From contig NZ_LGTE01000001.1 of the NCBI RefSeq assembly GCF_001263415.1, positions 62,001-126,000 on the forward strand: a stretch of DNA of 64,000 nt, in the 5' to 3' direction. The translations under genes were made by a program, and so were the position numbers. Positions 3,347 to 50,494 of this stretch are shown one piece after another; the first letter of the stretch is position 1; each line of letters begins with the position of its first letter. The notes under the pieces are model-generated. The model had not been told where the DNA came from. It saw nothing but the letters and a program-made list of their open reading frames with translations, and did no database searches. The DNA comes from Thermincola ferriacetica (GTDB lineage Bacteria > Bacillota > Thermincolia > Thermincolales > Thermincolaceae).

Positions 3347-3443
3347 TGGCGGGAGCGTGTGGGAATCGAACCCACCGCGGACAGGATCACTGCCCGCCAA
3401 CGGATTTGAAGTCCGGGCAAGCCACCAGGCCAAATCCGCTCCC
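3347..3443 (-). tRNA. selC: tRNA-Sec (anticodon TCA)
   Basis: Minus-strand 97-nt tRNA. It begins GGGAGCGGATTTGG and ends in CGCTCCC-G-CCA, with CCA encoded. The anticodon loop is ACTTCAAAT with anticodon TCA, there is a long variable arm, and the T arm is GGTGGGTTCGATTCCCACA. The acceptor stem can form eight pairs, as in selenocysteine tRNAs. It has its own promoter and terminator. Its presence fits the in-frame TGA selenoprotein near 50.1 kb. Confidence 0.95.
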
Positions 3444-3658: not shown

Positions 3659-3859
3659 ATGTTCGGTTTTTTGCCAAGCATAGGGTTCCCTGAACTGATA
3701 TTAATATTGGTTATCGCGTTAATAATCTTCGGGCCCGGTAAGTTACCCGAAGTGGGTAAGGCTCTGGGCAAAGGTATCAGGGAATTTAAAAGCGCTTCCA
3801 AAGAAGTGCAAAAGGAAATTCACGAAGCAGTTAATACTTCTGATAATGAAGCCAAATAA
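3659..3859 (+). CDS. tatA: Sec-independent (twin-arginine) translocase protein TatA/E
   Basis: Pore-forming subunit of the Tat system, which exports folded proteins. The 66-residue protein has one N-terminal membrane helix, the hinge [17 protein letters not shown] and then an amphipathic helix, a complete small TatA. ATG 3659 is chosen over the upstream in-frame start at 3620 because GGGAGG (3644-3649) precedes it by about 9 bases. No tatC is nearby. A terminator follows immediately, so it is probably monocistronic. Confidence 0.93.
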
Positions 3860-5184: not shown

Positions 5185-6231
5185 ATGGGTATCCGAGACA
5201 AATTTAAGTTTGATTTATCAAAGACCGAGGATAAACTGAAACTGTTTATCCTGGTAAGCGGCGCTCTTTTGTTTATCCTGGTTGCTGCTGTGGCGGGGAT
5301 TTCATTAACCATGTCCCCAGAATTCTGTGTCTTATGTCATGACGCCATGCAGCCCGAATACGTGACGTGGAAAGTATCATCACACAGTAATATTCGCTGT
5401 GTGGACTGTCACATGGAGCCGGGTGTAGTTAACATATTAATAGAAAAAGTAATGGCTTCCAAACACTTAATTAATTATGCCATAACCAAGGAATATAAGG
5501 AAGAGAAACCTCTGCACATGAAAAACGAACTGCCAAGCCATCTCTGTGAGAAGTGTCATAATGTGAAGAACCGGAACTTCACACTCTCTGGTGATCTCAT
5601 TGTGCCGCACGAGTTGCACGGAGAAAAAGGAGTAGGATGCGTGAAGTGCCACTCCGGTGTTGCCCATGGTAATATTTACAAGAGGGGTGTCAGTGTTGGC
5701 GACATTGGAGCATGGACCTTGGAAGACGGAAAGAAAAATATGGCTAAGCAATTTACTCAGCCGGATATGGATGTCTGTGTGGAATGTCACATGAACCCGG
5801 CCAAGTTCGGCGTGCAAGGGGTTAAAAGCGTTACCTTCCGCTGCGAAGCTTGTCATAAATCAATCTTTACTCCGGAAAACCATAAAGACAAAGGCTGGAC
5901 CTCCCAGGGCTTACATGGTGTGAGCGCCGAGTCCGGCGACAAAGAGTTCAAGGGCTGCGTAATGTGCCACAGCATCGGTGTGAAGACCGAGAAGATTGCT
6001 ACCGGCAACAAGGTTAAGGACTTTGCTTGGGGTAATCAGTTCTGCTCCAGTTGTCATGCCAAACTGCCGCCAAGCCATGCACAGAGAGATGTCTGGATGC
6101 CGAACCACAAAAAAGTTGTGGCCACCAAGGGCATGAAGAACTGTGAAGCATGCCACAGCCTGAAGGCTCCCGAAGGAAAGGTTTCTGCACCCGCCGGTCT
6201 CTATTGCAACAAGTGTCACTGGTTCAAGTAG
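5185..6231 (+). CDS. Membrane-anchored decahaem c-type cytochrome, NapC/NirT-like N-terminus
   Basis: Probable quinol-side electron carrier anchored in the cytoplasmic membrane and facing outward. The 348 residues contain a cytoplasmic N-terminus, one membrane helix (~residues 20-42) and ten CXXCH haem motifs. The first, CVLCH followed by PEYVTWKVSSHSN, matches NapC/NirT/NrfH quinol dehydrogenases; the extra haems extend beyond the usual four. GTGAGGAGG precedes ATG 5185. The first ~60 residues (KFDLSKTEDKLKLFILVS) are shared with the next gene, so the two arose by duplication. Role in quinol oxidation is inference from the family. Confidence 0.9.
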   Translation: MGIRDKFKFDLSKTEDKLKLFILVSGALLFILVAAVAGISLTMSPEFCVLCHDAMQPEYVTWKVSSHSNIRCVDCHMEPGVVNILIEKVMASKHLINYAITKEYKEEKPLHMKNELPSHLCEKCHNVKNRNFTLSGDLIVPHELHGEKGVGCVKCHSGVAHGNIYKRGVSVGDIGAWTLEDGKKNMAKQFTQPDMDVCVECHMNPAKFGVQGVKSVTFRCEACHKSIFTPENHKDKGWTSQGLHGVSAESGDKEFKGCVMCHSIGVKTEKIATGNKVKDFAWGNQFCSSCHAKLPPSHAQRDVWMPNHKKVVATKGMKNCEACHSLKAPEGKVSAPAGLYCNKCHWFK

Positions 6232-6314
6232 AATTCATTTCACCTGACGCGCTTTATTTACTGCACGATATCCACCAGGGGACTTGGCTGAATGTCCACT
6301 AGGGAGGAACCTTG

Positions 6315-7538
6315 ATGAAGTTACCTCAATGGAGCTTGTTTAAAAAACTGGATCTTTCAAAGACGGAAGACAGGCTGAAACTATTTATTCTTGTATCTGC
6401 TGTCTGTACCTTTATGTTAATAGCTGTGGCCGGCGCCATTCGGGTTACCATGGAACCATCATTTTGTGGCAAATGCCATGTAATGAGGCCTGAATATGTA
6501 ACGTGGGAGGCTTCCTCCCACGTTCAGGTTGCCTGCACCGACTGTCACATTAAGCCGGGTCTGGGCAACCTGATTATACATAAGATTGCGGCGCTCAAGG
6601 AGTTGGCCCTGTATTTTACGAACACTTATGATCGTCCGATAAAAATGAGCCATAAGCTTCCCGATGAGGTCTGTACGCAGTGCCATTCAACCTTTCGTGA
6701 ATATACTCCGTCGGGTGATTTAATAATTCCCCATGAGCGCCACGCGGCTAAAGGTGTAATGTGCGTGGAATGCCATTCGGGAGTGGCCCACGGTAATATT
6801 GTCAGACGGGGTTTAACCAGGGACGGGAATTATGCGGCCTGGACCACTGCTGTCGGGAAACAGCAAATGGCCAAGGATTTTACCGAGCCGAAAATGAATG
6901 TCTGTATGGACTGCCACAGTAAACGTAAGGTAACAAATGCCTGCGAGGCTTGCCATACATCGATTACCATGCCGCCTGACCATAAAGTCAAGGGTTTTGG
7001 CGTCACCCACGGGAAACTGGCTAAGAAGGATATAAGTTATTGTAACAAGTGTCACTCTTATGCAGTGGCCGGAAATGAAATCCCCGGAGTCAGCAAAGTT
7101 GCCGAATATGCCAGGGGGAATTCCTTCTGTTACAACTGCCATATGAAACGACCCGATGGCCATACTGAAGACTGGCGTGTCATTCATAAGCGGTCTGCCA
7201 AAAACAATGTTGACGGATGCTTAGTATGCCATAACAATACTCCGCCCAGGAAAGAGGACCTGGCGACTCCGACCTATTGTCAGCAATGCCATGGTGCTGT
7301 GGCCAAAGCTGAAACATCTAACAGCGGTGTTGTACAGAAGAGCGGCGTTCCGCAAGCGGAGAAGCAGGCGGCGAAGCCGGGCAACACGGCTGACGACTTT
7401 AAGAAAACCAAAGCCCACCCGCCAGGCTGGAGAAAACAGCACCCACAGTTTATTAAGACTGAAGGGATTGCCAGGGGCAGATGTTTCTCCTGCCACGATA
7501 CAACCAACTGTTCACGGTGCCATACGGGAACGAATTAA
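6315..7538 (+). CDS. Membrane-anchored dodecahaem c-type cytochrome, NapC/NirT-like N-terminus
   Basis: Paralogue of the preceding decahaem protein, sharing LDLSKTEDRLKLFILVS, the membrane helix and the CGKCH...PEYVTWEASSH region. The 407 residues carry twelve CXXCH motifs. The C-terminal part has a Lys/Ala/Gln-rich linker (~residues 325-375) followed by two closing motifs, CFSCH and CSRCH. ATG 6315 is preferred to TTG 6312 because of spacing to GGGAGG (6302-6307). It would pass electrons from membrane quinol to outer cytochromes. A terminator lies ~110 bases downstream. Confidence 0.9.
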   Translation: MKLPQWSLFKKLDLSKTEDRLKLFILVSAVCTFMLIAVAGAIRVTMEPSFCGKCHVMRPEYVTWEASSHVQVACTDCHIKPGLGNLIIHKIAALKELALYFTNTYDRPIKMSHKLPDEVCTQCHSTFREYTPSGDLIIPHERHAAKGVMCVECHSGVAHGNIVRRGLTRDGNYAAWTTAVGKQQMAKDFTEPKMNVCMDCHSKRKVTNACEACHTSITMPPDHKVKGFGVTHGKLAKKDISYCNKCHSYAVAGNEIPGVSKVAEYARGNSFCYNCHMKRPDGHTEDWRVIHKRSAKNNVDGCLVCHNNTPPRKEDLATPTYCQQCHGAVAKAETSNSGVVQKSGVPQAEKQAAKPGNTADDFKKTKAHPPGWRKQHPQFIKTEGIARGRCFSCHDTTNCSRCHTGTN

Positions 7539-7565
7539 AATTTGTCGAATTATGTAAATAAAAAG

Positions 7566-7861
7566 TTGGTGGAATAAGGAAAAAAGCAGTGGATTTTTAT
7601 GGTGTTTTAGGATTATAATATAATTAACCGCAGAAGAAAATTGAAGAGCAGGAGAATTATCATTCTCCTGCTTTTTCAGGCCTTTTTAGACTGGTATTTT
7701 CATCCTCTGGGACCACCAAATACCTCAGTTGGCGGACTTTGAAAAAGCCCTGTGTGCGTACCAAAACCAAAATTTAGAAGGGGTTTATAAATTTTTGGCG
7801 AATCAATTAATTAGAAGAATTGAACATAAAATCCACTGCCCCCCTAATCTTTTTTCACCAA
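7566..7861. mobile_element. MITE-like element with ~36-bp imperfect terminal inverted repeats
   Basis: The left end 7566-7601 starts TTGGTG and contains GCAGTGGATTTTTATG. The right end 7861-7825, read in reverse complement, also starts TTGGTG and contains GCAGTGGATTTTATG. The 296-bp interior holds no convincing gene but does contain a terminator hairpin. No clear target-site duplication is seen (left flank AATAAAAAG, right flank CCATACGAT). It may be a non-autonomous element or the remnant of an insertion sequence. Confidence 0.5.
7646..7676 (+). terminator. Terminator downstream of the dodecahaem gene
   Basis: AGCAGGAGAAT 7647-7657 pairs perfectly with ATTCTCCTGCT 7662-7672 around TATC, followed by TTTT. 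It lies inside the inverted-repeat element at 7566-7861. Confidence 0.8.
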
Positions 7862-7943
7862 CCATACGATATATAAATATAGATAGAAATCTAGATTAGC
7901 CGCACCAGTTGTTGTGGAAAGGTGGCGAAAGGAGCCGATAATA

Positions 7944-9470
7944 ATGGGGCGTAACAGGATATTGATGTTCGGTCTCCTTACGGTAGTAGTGGTTGGGATT
8001 CTTGTATCCTTACCGGCGGTCCGGCAGGAGCTACGCCAAATACTTAATACTATACAACTTTATATTAGCGATAACCCCACCGGTCCCAAGCTGCCGGACA
8101 GGGAGAACGATAAAAAAGAATGTGGTTACTGCCATTCCGATAAAAGCAGGGACTTCAGTAAAAAGTATCAACACGCCCCCTTTGCCAAGTGGTTCTGCAA
8201 GGACTGCCACGCTTCCCACACCGTGGGCAGCGGAAAATACGAGTACGTGGTGGAAATTGATAAGCTTTGTACCACTTGCCACTTTAACCGGAAACCAAAC
8301 GCGCTTTATCCATACCAACATATGCCCTACCAGAAAGGCCACTGCACCGATTGTCATGACCCACATGCATCAGATTACGAATACTTGCTACGTATGCCAC
8401 AAAAGGAACTTTGTACAAGCTGTCACCGAATGGAAATTTTCTGGAATTTTTCTGTTAAACATAAACCTTATGAAATTGGCGCCTGTGCCGATTGCCATGA
8501 CCCACATGCTTCAAAATACAGAGGCATGACCAGGCTGCCGGGTAAGGCGCTGTGCTTCACCTGCCACTATGACCGGCAGAGTGAGACCCTGCAGCCCGTA
8601 CAGCATCTGCCCTTCAGTACGGGTGAATGTACCAACTGCCACGGCGCCCATGCCACCAATGCCGATGCGTTGCTTCTGTTGCCGGGTAACAGTTTGTGCC
8701 TGAGTTGCCATGTGGGCATGAATGAAAAACTGAAAACGGGTTATGTACATACCCCGGTGAAGAGAAAATGTACCGAGTGCCATGTGCCGCATGCATCCAG
8801 GTACCCGGCTCTGCTGCCCGAACAGAGGACCAACTTGTGTTACCTGTGTCACGGTGACCTGCGTCCGGAGTTCCAGAAAGCGTCCAGGCATCCTGTGGGT
8901 AACGGACTTCTGGAGTGCGACGGTTGCCATGACCCGCATGTAGGGAAAGGACCGAAACTGGAAAGAGAAAAGGGTAATCAATTATGCTACTTATGCCACC
9001 TTGGGCTGGAGTCCACTTATGAACAACTGGCCCACGCTAAGAAGGCCAAGGGCCCGGGTGGGGTAGGGGCATGTACCAATTGCCATGTGCCGCACGGGTC
9101 CCAGTGGAAGCCGCTGCTGCGCGACAAGCAAGAGCCCATGTGCAACAACTGTCATACCAAGATTGCCAAGGCCAGGATTAACCATCCCTTCGGGGAACAG
9201 TATAAAGACCCATGGCACGGCGGGACCATGCACTGCACTAGTTGTCACGGACCGCATGGGACGCCTTATAAGAAATTTACTTTACTGCCGGATGACGGGT
9301 TCTGTCTGAAGTGCCATGGTGAGAAACGGAAGGACAATGCAAAGTACTATACAGTACACCGTCTGGTTCCGGCGAAAAATGAGCCCAAGCCAAAAGAGGT
9401 GGAAACAAAGGTACCGCCGAGGAGTGCGAATAAGACGAAGGCTATAAACAAGAAGGCCGGAGGACCTTAG
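7944..9470 (+). CDS. 17-haem cytochrome of the doubled-CXXCH type, N-terminally anchored
   Basis: 508 residues: a short positive N-terminus, one membrane helix or uncleaved signal (~residues 8-28), then seventeen CXXCH motifs in a regular pattern of the doubled-CXXCH family (PF09699/TIGR01905-like). Many are followed by D/N-P-H or G/V-P-H, as in CTDCHDPHAS. The repeats span nearly the whole protein, ending with a Lys-rich tail of ~45 residues. ATG 7944 follows AAAGGAGC with good spacing; an ATG-less longer frame starts at 7914. It is the first gene of a run with the TPR and NHL genes. Likely an electron wire across the cell wall; no partner is proven. Confidence 0.92.
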   Translation: MGRNRILMFGLLTVVVVGILVSLPAVRQELRQILNTIQLYISDNPTGPKLPDRENDKKECGYCHSDKSRDFSKKYQHAPFAKWFCKDCHASHTVGSGKYEYVVEIDKLCTTCHFNRKPNALYPYQHMPYQKGHCTDCHDPHASDYEYLLRMPQKELCTSCHRMEIFWNFSVKHKPYEIGACADCHDPHASKYRGMTRLPGKALCFTCHYDRQSETLQPVQHLPFSTGECTNCHGAHATNADALLLLPGNSLCLSCHVGMNEKLKTGYVHTPVKRKCTECHVPHASRYPALLPEQRTNLCYLCHGDLRPEFQKASRHPVGNGLLECDGCHDPHVGKGPKLEREKGNQLCYLCHLGLESTYEQLAHAKKAKGPGGVGACTNCHVPHGSQWKPLLRDKQEPMCNNCHTKIAKARINHPFGEQYKDPWHGGTMHCTSCHGPHGTPYKKFTLLPDDGFCLKCHGEKRKDNAKYYTVHRLVPAKNEPKPKEVETKVPPRSANKTKAINKKAGGP

Positions 9471-9509
9471 TAAACTTGCTTTGAAACATGAAAGCTAGGG
9501 GGATAAGAC

Positions 9510-10154
9510 ATGGAGCAGACAAATTCGGAAGTTTCCCTTCGTACAGCGGTAATTATTTTGATTGCGGTTATCACAGCGCTGGCAGTAATTGGTTTATATG
9601 TAGGTAATAAGTTTTTTTGGAAGCCAGTTGATGCCAGAACTGTGGCGGAGAAGCGCTTTGACAGCATTGAGACAGCTTATAAAAATAATCCCAAAGACAA
9701 ACAGGCTGCTTTAGCCTATGCTATTGCGTTGTATACACAGGGAAAGAACGGTGCTGCGGAAAAACTGTTTGCGGAATTGGCAAGGAAAAACCCCGGAGAT
9801 AACGCAATTCTGGTAAATTACGCAAGTTTTAAAAAGGACACGGGCGACAGGAAAAAAGCTGCAGAACTGTTCGAAAAGGTGCTCAAAAAAAGTCCGTACT
9901 TTGTACCGGCCAATGTTCAATATGCGGTTTTGTTACGTGAACAGGGCAAATATGAGGAGGCTCTGACGAAGATTGACAATGCTTTGAGGATTGAACCTGC
10001 TGCTGCTGATATCCTTCTGGAAAAAGCAAAAATTTATATTGCGATGAAGGATGGTCAGAAGGCTAAAGAGTATTTGCAAAGGGCTCTGAAATTTGTTCCC
10101 AATTATGAAGAGGCACAAAAACTTATGAAACAACTGGAACAGGAAGGTAAATAA
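9510..10154 (+). CDS. Membrane-anchored TPR-repeat protein
   Basis: 214 residues with an N-terminal membrane helix (~residues 11-34) and then about four tetratricopeptide repeats, e.g. AALAYAIALYTQGKNGAAEKLFAELARKNPG and ANVQYAVLLREQGKYEEALTKIDNALRIEPA. TPR domains are protein-docking surfaces, and this one would face outside the membrane. It lies between the 17-haem cytochrome and the NHL gene, starting 2 bases before the latter, so it is co-transcribed. A role as assembly or docking factor for multihaem proteins is inference; CcmH/NrfG-type TPR proteins are the nearest functional analogy. Confidence 0.85.
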   Translation: MEQTNSEVSLRTAVIILIAVITALAVIGLYVGNKFFWKPVDARTVAEKRFDSIETAYKNNPKDKQAALAYAIALYTQGKNGAAEKLFAELARKNPGDNAILVNYASFKKDTGDRKKAAELFEKVLKKSPYFVPANVQYAVLLREQGKYEEALTKIDNALRIEPAAADILLEKAKIYIAMKDGQKAKEYLQRALKFVPNYEEAQKLMKQLEQEGK

Positions 10155-10155
10155 T

Positions 10156-11121
10156 ATGGCCAAAAAAATATCGAGATCAACCCTGCTGAACATTATATTG
10201 GGAGCTGCTTTAATCGTTGTGCTTGTATTCGGATATTTTTACTTCAAGAGAGTAAGTCCTGTTGAAGTAGCGCAGACAGTAGTTCCAGCCAATTTGCCGG
10301 AATATGAATTTATGTTTCCGATTTATGGTGGAGAAAAGGAATTCAATAATCCGTATGAGATACTGGCTTTTAATGACGCAGTGTACGTGTCCGACAGTAA
10401 AAATGCCAGGATTGCCGTCTATGACCGAACCGGAAAGCACCTGAAAGACATTGTTTCCAAGGAAATGAAGTATCCGGCAGGTATGTACTGGGACGGCGAA
10501 CGTTTGTGGGTGGCCGAAGCCATGAACCATAAGGTTCTGGTTATGAATGCCGACGGTAATATGCTGGACAGAATTTCACTTGACAATAAAGTTCTGGTTG
10601 CCGATATTGCCGTAAATGGAAATAAATTGTATCTAATCAATATAAGGGCGATGCGGATTGAGATATATGACCTGAATACCAGAAAACTTATTAAGAGTTT
10701 TGGGGGGATCGGCAAGGAGGAAGGAAAACTTTATTATCCCTATGACCTTACGGTCAGGGACGGAAAACTGTATGTAGCAGATTCGCTTAATAACAGGATT
10801 AATATTTATGACTTGGACGGTAAATTTATCATGACTCTGCCCAAACGTACAGGCGATCCGAAAAAGGGCGGCCTTTCTGTCCCACGCGGGCTTGCATTTG
10901 ATAAATCCGGCGTGTTGTACACTGTCGAGGGCATGGCTCACCGAGTTACTGCCATTAACGATAAGGGAGAAATACTTATGCAGCTTACCAAGAGTCAGCC
11001 CCTCAACGAAGAAGAGGTAATGGATATTACTCTTCCAACCGATGTGACCTTTGATGAAGTTGGTCGTATGTATGTTCTCGAACACGGATTTAAGCGTATA
11101 CTGGTTTATAAAAGAAAATAG
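10156..11121 (+). CDS. Membrane-anchored NHL-repeat beta-propeller protein
   Basis: 321 residues with an N-terminal membrane helix (~residues 12-30) followed by about six NHL-type blades, recognised by repeated units such as LYVADSLNNRINIYDLDGKFI and VYVSDSKNARIAVYDRTGKHL. NHL propellers bind proteins or polymers; no catalytic residues are evident. Translationally close to the TPR gene (1-base gap) and to the hexahaem gene (21 bases). A similar protein is encoded at 26388, also immediately upstream of a secreted cytochrome gene, which suggests a shared role in cytochrome placement. Confidence 0.87.
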   Translation: MAKKISRSTLLNIILGAALIVVLVFGYFYFKRVSPVEVAQTVVPANLPEYEFMFPIYGGEKEFNNPYEILAFNDAVYVSDSKNARIAVYDRTGKHLKDIVSKEMKYPAGMYWDGERLWVAEAMNHKVLVMNADGNMLDRISLDNKVLVADIAVNGNKLYLINIRAMRIEIYDLNTRKLIKSFGGIGKEEGKLYYPYDLTVRDGKLYVADSLNNRINIYDLDGKFIMTLPKRTGDPKKGGLSVPRGLAFDKSGVLYTVEGMAHRVTAINDKGEILMQLTKSQPLNEEEVMDITLPTDVTFDEVGRMYVLEHGFKRILVYKRK

Positions 11122-11142
11122 CCTGGAAAGGAGGTGACAAAG

Positions 11143-12204
11143 ATGAAAAAGTTAGTTTTAATTTCCTTAGTGGCCGGTCTGATTACCCTCATGGTGTCTG
11201 CAAATGCTTTTGCCGAAGAACCTTACTACCATGGCGACTTTGCTGCTGATACCACCGGGTGCGCCAAGTGTCACGTTACCCACGCCGGTGCTGCCAAGGC
11301 GTTGTTGATTGCAGGTCCCAAGCAGACCGACTTCTGCTACTATTGTCATAACGGTATACTGAAAAGTCCGTATGATGCGGAAAACGGCCAGATAGAAACA
11401 AGTACCGGACTTCATGCTTCCCTGGCCGGCGGTTTCTTGAAGACCTTTGACTTTGACAACAAAGTATATGGCACTGATGACAGCAACACTGCCAATTATG
11501 TTTATAGCACATCCGTTCACGGTGTGGAAAATTATGATAGCAATGACTGGCTTAACGGAGTGCAGATTCCAGGTGGTAGCAATACTTTAACCGGTGATTT
11601 CCGCTGCGGTTCCTGCCATGACCCTCACGCCGGCGGTACTTATCCGGCAGCGGGTGTGATGCCGCGTCTGTTAAAGAAAACCTTGCCGGCTGCTAACCTT
11701 AATCCGGCAGACCATCAGGACTGGGAGTTCACTGCCGTTGCTGCTTCTACTACTGGGGGCTTCAAGTCCAAGGTTGTAACTGACTACGGTGTCAATGCCG
11801 GTGTATGGTGTGCAGGCTGCCATGACCTCTTTAATCAGACAGCCCACAATGCCGGTCAGACGCAGGAGACTATTACCGGTAAATACATGCACCGGATGAA
11901 TTTCGTCATTAATGCAAGTCAGGTTACCAACATTCAGCATGCTACTATTGACAAACTGGCTTTGGCTGATAACGCCGGTGCCAAGACACTGACCTGCCTC
12001 ACCTGTCACAGGGCGCACGGTACGGCTTCTTCTGTGAACGCCGGTCTTGTATTCCCGCGTGCCGCTTCGTACTTGCACGGTGACGGCACTGCAGCATCCA
12101 ATACGCAGAGGTCCAGCGTCCTGCTGAGAGAAAAGAACAGGGACGTCTGCTATGACTGCCATGGTGCTGCCCAGTACAATACGCCGACGTTGCAGGCTAA
12201 TTAA
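11143..12204 (+). CDS. Secreted hexahaem c-type cytochrome
   Basis: 353 residues with a cleavable-type signal peptide (KKLVLISLVAGLITLMVSANAFA) and six CXXCH motifs, widely spaced (~50 residues apart). Long Asn/Thr/Gly-rich stretches lie between them, a low haem density for this cluster. ATG 11143 is chosen because GGAGGTGA precedes it by about 6 bases; the frame starts at GTG 11134 inside that site. Last gene of the 17-haem/TPR/NHL unit, closed by a strong terminator. Probably a surface or wall-associated electron carrier; no LPXTG or SLH anchor is visible. Confidence 0.9.
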   Translation: MKKLVLISLVAGLITLMVSANAFAEEPYYHGDFAADTTGCAKCHVTHAGAAKALLIAGPKQTDFCYYCHNGILKSPYDAENGQIETSTGLHASLAGGFLKTFDFDNKVYGTDDSNTANYVYSTSVHGVENYDSNDWLNGVQIPGGSNTLTGDFRCGSCHDPHAGGTYPAAGVMPRLLKKTLPAANLNPADHQDWEFTAVAASTTGGFKSKVVTDYGVNAGVWCAGCHDLFNQTAHNAGQTQETITGKYMHRMNFVINASQVTNIQHATIDKLALADNAGAKTLTCLTCHRAHGTASSVNAGLVFPRAASYLHGDGTAASNTQRSSVLLREKNRDVCYDCHGAAQYNTPTLQAN

Positions 12205-50012: not shown

Positions 50013-50041
50013 TTGCGTTTCAAAAATATTTGTTATATAAT
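50013..50041 (+). promoter_or_regulatory. Promoter of the selenoprotein gene
   Basis: TTGCGT 50013-50018, a 17-base spacer and a perfect TATAAT at 50036-50041. The -10 box runs directly into the palindrome at 50041-50055. Confidence 0.7.
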
Positions 50042-50055
50042 ACCCCTATAGGGTA
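50041..50055. promoter_or_regulatory. CsoR/CstR-type operator-like palindrome
   Basis: TACCC-CTATA-GGGTA is a perfect 5-bp inverted repeat with the TACCC/GGGTA half-sites seen in operators of the CsoR family (copper, or persulfide for CstR). It covers the start-site region, so binding would block initiation. No CsoR-family gene is present in the window. Confidence 0.6.
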
Positions 50056-50089
50056 AGGAGAACTTCTTACCTATAAGGAGGTGACGCAC

Positions 50090-50407
50090 GTGATTACTGT
50101 AACGGGTAAAGCTCAGGAAGAGTTAAAAAAGGTGCTTGATGAACACGGCGCCGATATAATCAGGGTGTTTATAGATGGCTTTGGCTGAAGCGGCCCGAGT
50201 TTCAAAATGGCTTTGGAAAAGTCAGTTAATGAAGATGACCATGTTTACGAGCAGGATGGCTTTAAAATAGTCATCAGCAAAGCCTATGATACGGACTATA
50301 ACAACCTGGAAATTGGTTGGGTCAAGAGTTACATGGGCGAAGGATTCAGCATTTACGATACCGGTAAATCAGGTTCATGCTGTGATTCGGGTTGCGGTGG
50401 ATGCTAG
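50090..50407 (+). CDS. HesB/IscA-related selenoprotein with in-frame TGA (Sec33)
   Basis: 105 residues if TGA at 50186-50188 is read as selenocysteine. GTG 50090 follows AAGGAGGTGA at 50075-50084. The residues around the Sec are FIDGFG-U-SGPSFKMAL. The frame then runs on to TAG 50405-50407 and ends with the Cys-rich tail SCCDSGCGGC. This matches the small HesB-like (seleno)protein family (TIGR01911-type) in which some members have Cys at this place. Both sides of the TGA are conserved-looking and tRNA-Sec is present. A short GGCC/GGCT hairpin can form 5-25 bases after the TGA, but I cannot confirm it as a SECIS. Likely role: sulfur/selenium or metal handling; unproven. Confidence 0.85.
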
Positions 50408-50451: not shown

Positions 50452-50494
50452 AGAAGGCTGCAAGGTATTAACCCTTGCGGCCTTCTGATTTTTC
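50452..50494 (+). terminator. Terminator after the selenoprotein gene
   Basis: AGAAGGCTGCAAGG 50452-50465 pairs with CCTTGCGGCCTTCT 50473-50486 (one G-T pair), followed by GATTTTT. Confidence 0.9.

What the first reader, a model, noticed from the sequence alone, without database searches (positions are those of the whole stretch)
50090..50407. HesB-like selenoprotein missed by standard gene calling
In-frame TGA at 50186-50188 interrupts a frame with excellent ribosome site on one side and a conserved-looking IscA/HesB-like sequence on the other. tRNA-Sec is in the same window.
Basis: partly seen in the sequence, partly recalled or inferred. Interest (0 to 1): 0.65.

Follow-up and report, generated by a model that had tools for sequence, protein, structure and literature searches.

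The report
HesB-like selenoprotein under repressor-type operator
A small iron-sulfur-type protein gene carries an in-frame UGA that is read as selenocysteine, and its promoter carries a copper/sulfur-sensor type DNA switch shared by many of its relatives, which gives a first testable clue to what this long-unexplained selenoprotein family does.

Summary
Window 50090-50407 is one 105-codon gene with in-frame TGA at 50186-50188, a strong ribosome site and a terminator. It encodes an IscA/HesB-type protein with Sec at the conserved Cys and the known UxGP motif. The genome has tRNA-Sec, selA, selB and selD. A SECIS hairpin follows the TGA: in 72 Sec loci its fixed stem pairs in 92% of cells, against 22-46% when slid and 35% in 26 Cys loci. 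The family is known, with unknown function; this is a new member.

New here: the promoter carries TACCC-N5-GGGTA, a CsoR-family operator, fused to the -10 box. It is exact in 11 of 11 Sec-HesB genes of the window's order, 25 of 72 overall in 11 families, and 0 of 26 Cys loci. In this order a Cys-Tyr-Cys, CstR-like regulator has the same site before its own gene, while copper-type csoR genes examined do not. I infer repression by that regulator, relieved probably by reactive sulfur (perhaps selenium) species. In some other families copper-type csoR genes carry the motif, so the effector is unproven.

The parts
50013..50018 (+). weak -35-like hexamer TTGCGT, 17 bases before the -10
   Evidence: read from sequence; 3 of 6 to consensus, so the consensus scan did not list it; a TTG at a similar spacing is visible in several order relatives
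50036..50041 (+). -10 box TATAAT, overlapping the operator
   Evidence: read from sequence; TATAATACCC or close forms in several of the 10 relatives printed
50040..50055 (.). CsoR-family type-2 operator ATACCCCTATAGGGTA (TAC-X9-GTA)
   Evidence: exact motif; conserved before 11 of 11 Sec-HesB genes of the order; matches the published consensus (passages of PMC3902906)
50075..50084 (+). ribosome binding site AAGGAGGTGA
   Evidence: sequence
50090..50407 (+). hesB-like selenoprotein gene, 105 codons plus TAG
50186..50188 (+). TGA read as selenocysteine (Sec33), at the IscA Cys position, motif UxGP
50207..50225 (+). bacterial SECIS hairpin; arms 50207-50213 and 50219-50225, apical loop with conserved GG
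50452..50486 (+). intrinsic terminator, so the gene is probably a single-gene unit
   Evidence: 14-pair stem followed by T-rich tail
3347..3443 (-). tRNA-Sec gene
   Evidence: ARAGORN; Rfam RF01852 74.9 bits

Best explanation
The gene makes a HesB-like selenoprotein: an IscA-fold protein whose conserved metal/cluster-ligand cysteine is selenocysteine, inserted at UGA by SelB and tRNA-Sec with the help of a SECIS hairpin that begins 18 bases after the UGA codon (shown by sequence). Its promoter is fused to a CsoR-family operator that covers the end of the -10 box and the expected start of transcription, so a CsoR-family repressor should block it (site shown, binding inferred). In this order the likely repressor is the Cys-Tyr-Cys, CstR-like protein whose own gene has the same site and whose downstream gene is thioredoxin (inferred). 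CstR-type repressors release DNA when their two thiols react with sulfane sulfur, sulfite or selenite (known for other CstRs). The protein is then made together with ferredoxin-type proteins, thioredoxin and an ACR3-like transporter, and most likely handles a thiophilic species (persulfide, selenide-type sulfur or a soft metal) or carries or repairs Fe-S clusters exposed to it, through Sec33 and the Cys-rich tail (inferred).
For: Sec: TGA kept in all orthologues found in the order; 92% of cells paired in a fixed SECIS stem in 72 Sec loci, slid controls 22-46%, Cys loci 35%; hairpin with G in the loop in 61 of 72 against a fraction 0.42 of synonymous shuffles; coupled change CTG/GAG (54) to TTG/AAG (10); selA, selB, selD over cut-offs. 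Fold: AF2 pLDDT 83.2; Foldseek best hits SufA and IscA. Operator: exact in 25 of 72 Sec loci (11 of 31 families), at most 1 mismatch in 33 of 72, 0 of 26 Cys loci, 0 of 102 downstream controls; shuffled upstream expectation 0.005 exact per 72; with spacers of 4-6, 31 of 72. Regulon: 20 hits (13 places) in the genome against 3 for the reversed pattern. Regulator: the Y-type gene carries the exact motif in own, G001, G002, G003, G005, G007, G009; H-type csoR genes of own, G001, G003, G005, G006 (two) have 2-4 mismatches; own copA on C3 has a different G-tract site. Literature: TAC-X9-GTA operator (PMC3902906, passages); CstR modified by sulfite, selenite, tellurite (PMC5016687, passages).
Against: 39 of 72 Sec loci lack the N5 motif within one mismatch; 6 of those have a 4-6 base spacer form, so this regulation is not universal. 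In families outside the order, six H-type (copper-type) csoR genes carry the exact motif (G130, G160, G233, G256, G345, G385), so the motif alone does not tell the effector. No binding or expression data. The protein fails the cut-offs of both NCBI Sec-HesB models. Absence of the motif from the own copper ATPase promoter argues only indirectly for a non-copper signal. The TTG/AAG coupling sits almost wholly in one order and may be one event.
Confidence: 0.7

Rival explanations
1. The same selenoprotein, but its switch is a copper response: a Cu(I)-sensing CsoR represses it, and it protects or replaces Fe-S carriers that copper damages, or binds Cu(I) itself.
For: The operator matches the copper CsoR consensus (PMC3902906 passages). 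In G130, G160, G233, G256, G345, G385 a Cys-His-Cys csoR gene carries the exact motif. The window's genome has a Cys-His-Cys CsoR and copper ATPases.
Against: In the window's order the Cys-His-Cys csoR genes examined and the own copA promoter on C3 lack the exact motif, while the Cys-Tyr-Cys regulator gene has it. None of the 13 motif places in the genome lies at a copper ATPase.
Confidence: 0.25
2. The palindrome belongs to some other repressor, and the resemblance to CsoR-family operators is coincidental.
For: No binding was tested; the order relative G004 has the most motif hits (49) but no HesB.
Against: The motif stands before the CsoR-family gene itself in most genomes of the order, typical of autoregulation, and it fits the published TAC-X9-GTA rule.
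Confidence: 0.08
3. TGA is an ordinary stop: a dead or split hesB gene.
For: Without recoding, the frame is two short ORFs.
Against: TGA kept in 75 examined loci, conserved SECIS stem, complete Sec machinery.
Confidence: 0.02

Closest known systems
HesB-like selenoprotein family (TIGR01911; UxGP motif; passages of PMC1794560 and PMC13188914)
   Same: IscA/HesB fold, Sec in the place of the conserved Cys, UxGP motif, found in anaerobic Firmicutes and Deltaproteobacteria; function unknown; the Methanococcus maripaludis member was identified by mutagenesis and 75Se labelling (passage of PMC11097638)
   Different: Scores below the TIGR01911 and NF038090 cut-offs; Cys-rich tail CCDSGCGGC; CsoR-type operator at the promoter, which I found described nowhere in my searches
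A-type Fe-S carriers IscA, SufA, ErpA
   Same: Fold (SufA and IscA best structural hits) and TIGR00049 over cut-off
   Different: Sec for the first Cys, no canonical C-terminal CGCG motif, separate gene with no isc/suf gene among its neighbours
CstR / TTHA1953 regulons (CsoR family; passages of PMC5480029, PMC10318464, PMC5016687)
   Same: Two-Cys CsoR-family regulator without the His ligand; thioredoxin among the targets; TAC/GTA operator
   Different: Known CstR targets named in those passages are rhodaneses, sulfite exporters, sulfide:quinone oxidoreductases or Sox genes; here a selenoprotein, ferredoxins and an ACR3-like transporter; Tyr at the place of His
DsrR of Allochromatium vinosum (2k4z)
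   Same: IscA-like fold, ninth structural hit; linked to sulfur metabolism (recalled)
   Different: Sequence identity 18%; no Sec

Membership tests
HesB-like selenoprotein | Sec (UGA) at the conserved HesB/IscA cysteine with UxGP | tested here: met
   USGP at codons 33-36; aligned with the Cys of 1nwb and 2apn
HesB-like selenoprotein | SECIS hairpin directly downstream with G in the apical loop | tested here: met
HesB-like selenoprotein | Score over the curated cut-off of TIGR01911 or NF038090 | tested here: not met
   43.5 of 66.35 and 60.1 of 85 bits; own paralogue also below both. So not a member by NCBI's models; the published description by Sec and UxGP is met
IscA/HesB superfamily (TIGR00049, PF01521) | Score over curated cut-off and IscA fold | tested here: met
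   61.9 of 58.8 and 46.1 of 26.3 bits; Foldseek SufA/IscA
HesB-like selenoprotein | Selenium in the protein | not testable with these tools
   needs 75Se labelling or mass spectrometry
CsoR-family (type 2) operator | TAC-X9-GTA with G/C tracts near the promoter | tested here: met
   TACCCCTATAGGGTA overlapping TATAAT; rule from PMC3902906
CstR (regulator, outside the window at G000:C5:103480) | CsoR-family domain with the Cys pair and without the His ligand | tested here: met
   PF02583 87.3 bits; Cys pair 29 apart with Tyr four residues before the second Cys
CstR (regulator, outside the window at G000:C5:103480) | Response to sulfane sulfur | not testable with these tools
   needs in vitro thiol chemistry and DNA binding

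The most novel reading that the evidence does not exclude
HesB-like selenoproteins of Firmicutes are effectors of a thiol-based (CstR-like) stress regulon: a repressor whose cysteines can react with sulfane sulfur and with selenite controls a protein that itself needs selenium, so the cell makes a selenol-bearing IscA relative when reactive sulfur or selenium species rise, to trap or transfer them or to guard Fe-S clusters.
Probability: 0.35. Interest if true: 0.7.

Novelty: new member of a known kind. Interest (0 to 1): 0.5.

Why it matters
HesB-like selenoproteins have been listed for about twenty years without a function (passages of PMC1794560, PMC11097638 and PMC13188914). A conserved CsoR-family operator before a large part of them names a regulator family, a small set of inducers to try (polysulfide, sulfite, selenite, copper) and co-regulated genes, so the function becomes directly testable. 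It also suggests that NCBI's Sec-HesB models miss these members.

Tried and rejected
Folding the single 53-base stretch after the TGA gave no significant energy (z -0.73); only the comparison across loci showed the SECIS. The motif is not clearly enriched in the window itself (4 hits with up to one mismatch, 1.7 expected); the other exact hit at 3744 lies in a tatA-like frame and is taken as chance. Motif places C7:77316, C16:18638 and C16:64336 sit inside or far from genes and are not counted as regulon members. No paper with CstR, selenocysteine and persulfide (0 papers) and none with HesB, CsoR and regulon (0) in the held library; the search for CsoR and selenoprotein (106 papers, 15 listed) was mostly off topic, and none of the 15 listed titles concerned this. 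These searches cover open PubMed Central papers only.

Assignment of one regulator for all families was rejected: outside the order, copper-type csoR genes carry the motif too.

Full report
What is there. Window 50090-50407 reads GTG...TAG, 105 codons, with one in-frame TGA at 50186-50188. The ribosome site AAGGAGGTGA lies at 50075-50084 and an intrinsic terminator at 50452-50486. The neighbours are a nucleobase permease-like gene upstream and a Spo0M-like gene downstream (names recalled from sequence; one search gives the frames). Without recoding only a 66-aa frame from ATG 50207 would be offered.

What it encodes. With TGA read as Sec the protein matches TIGR00049 (61.9 bits, cut-off 58.8) and PF01521 (46.1, cut-off 26.3) along its length, and more weakly the two NCBI models for Sec-HesB proteins: NF038090 60.1 of 85 and TIGR01911 43.5 of 66.35 bits. 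The TGA aligns with the conserved Cys of AQ_1857 and HI1723. The AlphaFold2 model (pLDDT 83.2; tail from 98 at low confidence) is closest to SufA and IscA. The motif USGP fits the UxGP given for the HesB-like selenoprotein family in a 2026 review (passages of PMC13188914). All 24 TGA genes of alignment A1 match the Sec-HesB models at E 1e-5 or better, with best E-values 3.6e-21 (NF038090) and 6.8e-19 (TIGR01911); by comparison with the bits listed I infer that none reaches the NF038090 cut-off and few reach that of TIGR01911.

Is the TGA really Sec? The genome has tRNA-Sec in the window, selB (367.7 bits), selA (638 bits) and selD (397.7 bits, itself with an in-frame TGA), all over NCBI cut-offs. 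It holds a second HesB-like gene with TGA at the same codon (G000:C1:229270, 35% identical). Among 149 relatives, 34 have a match, and among 398 genomes of the phylum 108 have one. One search lists 141 places by my count: 84 with at least one in-frame TGA, 56 without a stop, 1 with TAA. I examined 75 of the 84 (9 low-scoring or edge places left out) and 27 of the 56. Of these 102, my site rule read 72 as Sec, 26 as Cys and 4 as unclear (3 TGA genes with altered motif, 1 Cys gene read in a wrong frame). Three of the 26 Cys loci are Cys forms of the xGP type (L029, L164, L167); the others are mostly ordinary IscA/ErpA-like proteins, so the Cys control is mainly a superfamily control.

SECIS. One fixed stem, 21-27 with 33-39 bases from the T of TGA (window 50207-50213 with 50219-50225), is paired in 92% of cells of the 72 Sec loci; sliding the partner by 1-3 bases gives 22-46%, and the 26 Cys loci give 35%. 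A hairpin with G early in the apical loop at the right distance is predicted in 61 of 72 Sec loci, against 0.42 of their synonymous shuffles; in Cys loci 11 of 26 against 0.31. The third base of the codon at 24-26 is T in 70 of 72 Sec loci but in 11 of 26 Cys loci, and the Leu codon and a codon two further on change together: CTG with GAG 54, TTG with AAG 10, TTG with GAG 1. The TTG/AAG form is nearly confined to the window's order, so it may be one event. A single-sequence fold of the window stretch alone was not significant (z -0.73).

The operator. Just before the gene stands TATAATACCCCTATAGGGTA (TATAAT 50036-50041, ATACCCCTATAGGGTA 50040-50055). TAC-X9-GTA flanking G/C tracts is the published rule for a number of CsoR-family type-2 operators, consensus ATATACCCCTNAGGGGTATAT (passages of PMC3902906). 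Exact TACCC-N5-GGGTA lies within 250 bases upstream in 25 of 72 Sec loci and with at most one mismatch in 33 of 72; in Cys loci 0 of 26; in the 255 bases downstream of the genes 0 of 102 (one of the 102, L165, had no downstream stretch). Shuffled upstream stretches give 0.005 exact and 0.325 near matches per 72. The exact sites come from 11 of 31 families; 11 of 11 loci in the window's order and 14 of 61 outside it (22 of 61 with at most one mismatch). Allowing spacers of 4-6 gives 31 of 72 and still 0 of 26. Thus 39 of 72 lack the N5 form within one mismatch; for them no regulator is proposed, apart from the 6 with other spacers.

The regulon. In the genome ATACCCN5GGGTA has 20 hits (13 distinct places) against 3 for the reversed pattern; in the nine order relatives the hits outnumber the control in every genome, though only by 10 to 8 in G008 and 9 to 4 in G009. 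Downstream genes in the window's genome (families): both Sec-HesB genes; a CsoR-family gene followed by thioredoxin, a Fur-type gene and a permease; small ferredoxins; an HDIG-domain protein; a Tat-type Fe-S protein with a cytochrome b; an ACR3/SBF-like transporter; a FAD-linked oxidase; a DUF1638 protein and a divergent LrgA. Relatives show several of the same classes: the CsoR-family gene, the Tat-type Fe-S protein, the ACR3/SBF-like transporter, the ferredoxin, a small coiled-coil protein and Sec-HesB (the 30 loci returned; names by eye from sequence).

Which regulator? The genome has two CsoR-family genes. One, at C5:103480, has the Cys pair with Tyr where copper CsoRs have His; the exact motif stands before it, as before the same Y-type gene in G001, G002, G003, G005, G007 and G009 (G008 one mismatch; in G006 the site at C8:41716 lies before a CsoR-family gene whose type I did not read). 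The His-type csoR genes of the window's genome, G001, G003, G005 and G006 (two) have only 2-4 mismatch matches, and the copper ATPase on C3 has a different, longer G-tract site. Alignment to solved CsoR-family chains shows the same change of His. So in this order the motif goes with the Y-type, CstR-like regulator. Against a general rule: in G130, G160, G233, G256, G345 and G385 a His-type csoR gene carries the exact motif, so in other families copper may be the signal.

How it most likely works. Shown: Sec codon, SECIS, machinery, operator on the promoter. Inferred: repression by the CstR-like protein by covering the -10 box; release when its thiols are modified. CstR is described as modified by sulfite, selenite and tellurite (passage of PMC5016687), CstR disulfide formation lowers DNA affinity (passages of PMC5480029), and the CstR-like TTHA1953 of Thermus controls a thioredoxin and Sox genes (passages of PMC10318464). 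The protein itself most likely uses Sec33 and its Cys-rich tail to bind a thiophilic ligand or an Fe-S cluster; no data here choose between these.

What is known. The HesB-like selenoprotein family is in print: 11 bacterial members in 2006 with two Sec-to-Cys changes (passages of PMC1794560); the M. maripaludis member was identified through mutagenesis and 75Se labelling, function unclear, and a disruption mutant still fixed nitrogen (passages of PMC11097638). I found no paper that ties it to a CsoR-family regulator (searches; open PubMed Central only).

Verdict.

Noticed in passing
G000:C1:229270-229569 (L003:4271-4570): Second HesB-like selenoprotein gene in the same genome, about 100 bases after a gene that looks like a CoA-disulfide reductase (Pyr_redox_2), with its own exact operator ATACCCAGTGGGGGTA.
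   Followed up: yes
window 5185-12204: Row of multihaem cytochrome genes (many CxxCH motifs) close to tRNA-Sec, suggesting metal or extracellular respiration.
   Followed up: no
L016:1786-1788: In G005 the HesB frame ends GC-TGA-TAA: either a double stop or a second, C-terminal Sec.
   Followed up: no
G004 (whole genome): Order relative without any HesB match has the most operator hits (49, control 0), so the regulon can be large without HesB.
   Followed up: no
L053:1281-1463 and L068: Small coiled-coil protein with a conserved PAHSVKP stretch downstream of the operator in own genome and G002; the own copy has no family match in NCBIfam or Pfam.
   Followed up: partly
L066: In G006 the operator stands before a small membrane protein that looks like DUF2892, a type often found with rhodaneses (recalled).
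   Followed up: no
L150, L154, L159: Three TGA-bearing relatives whose site motif departs from GUxG (ISUGSP, MKUGVP, GCUSVAP): possible divergent Sec subfamilies.
   Followed up: no
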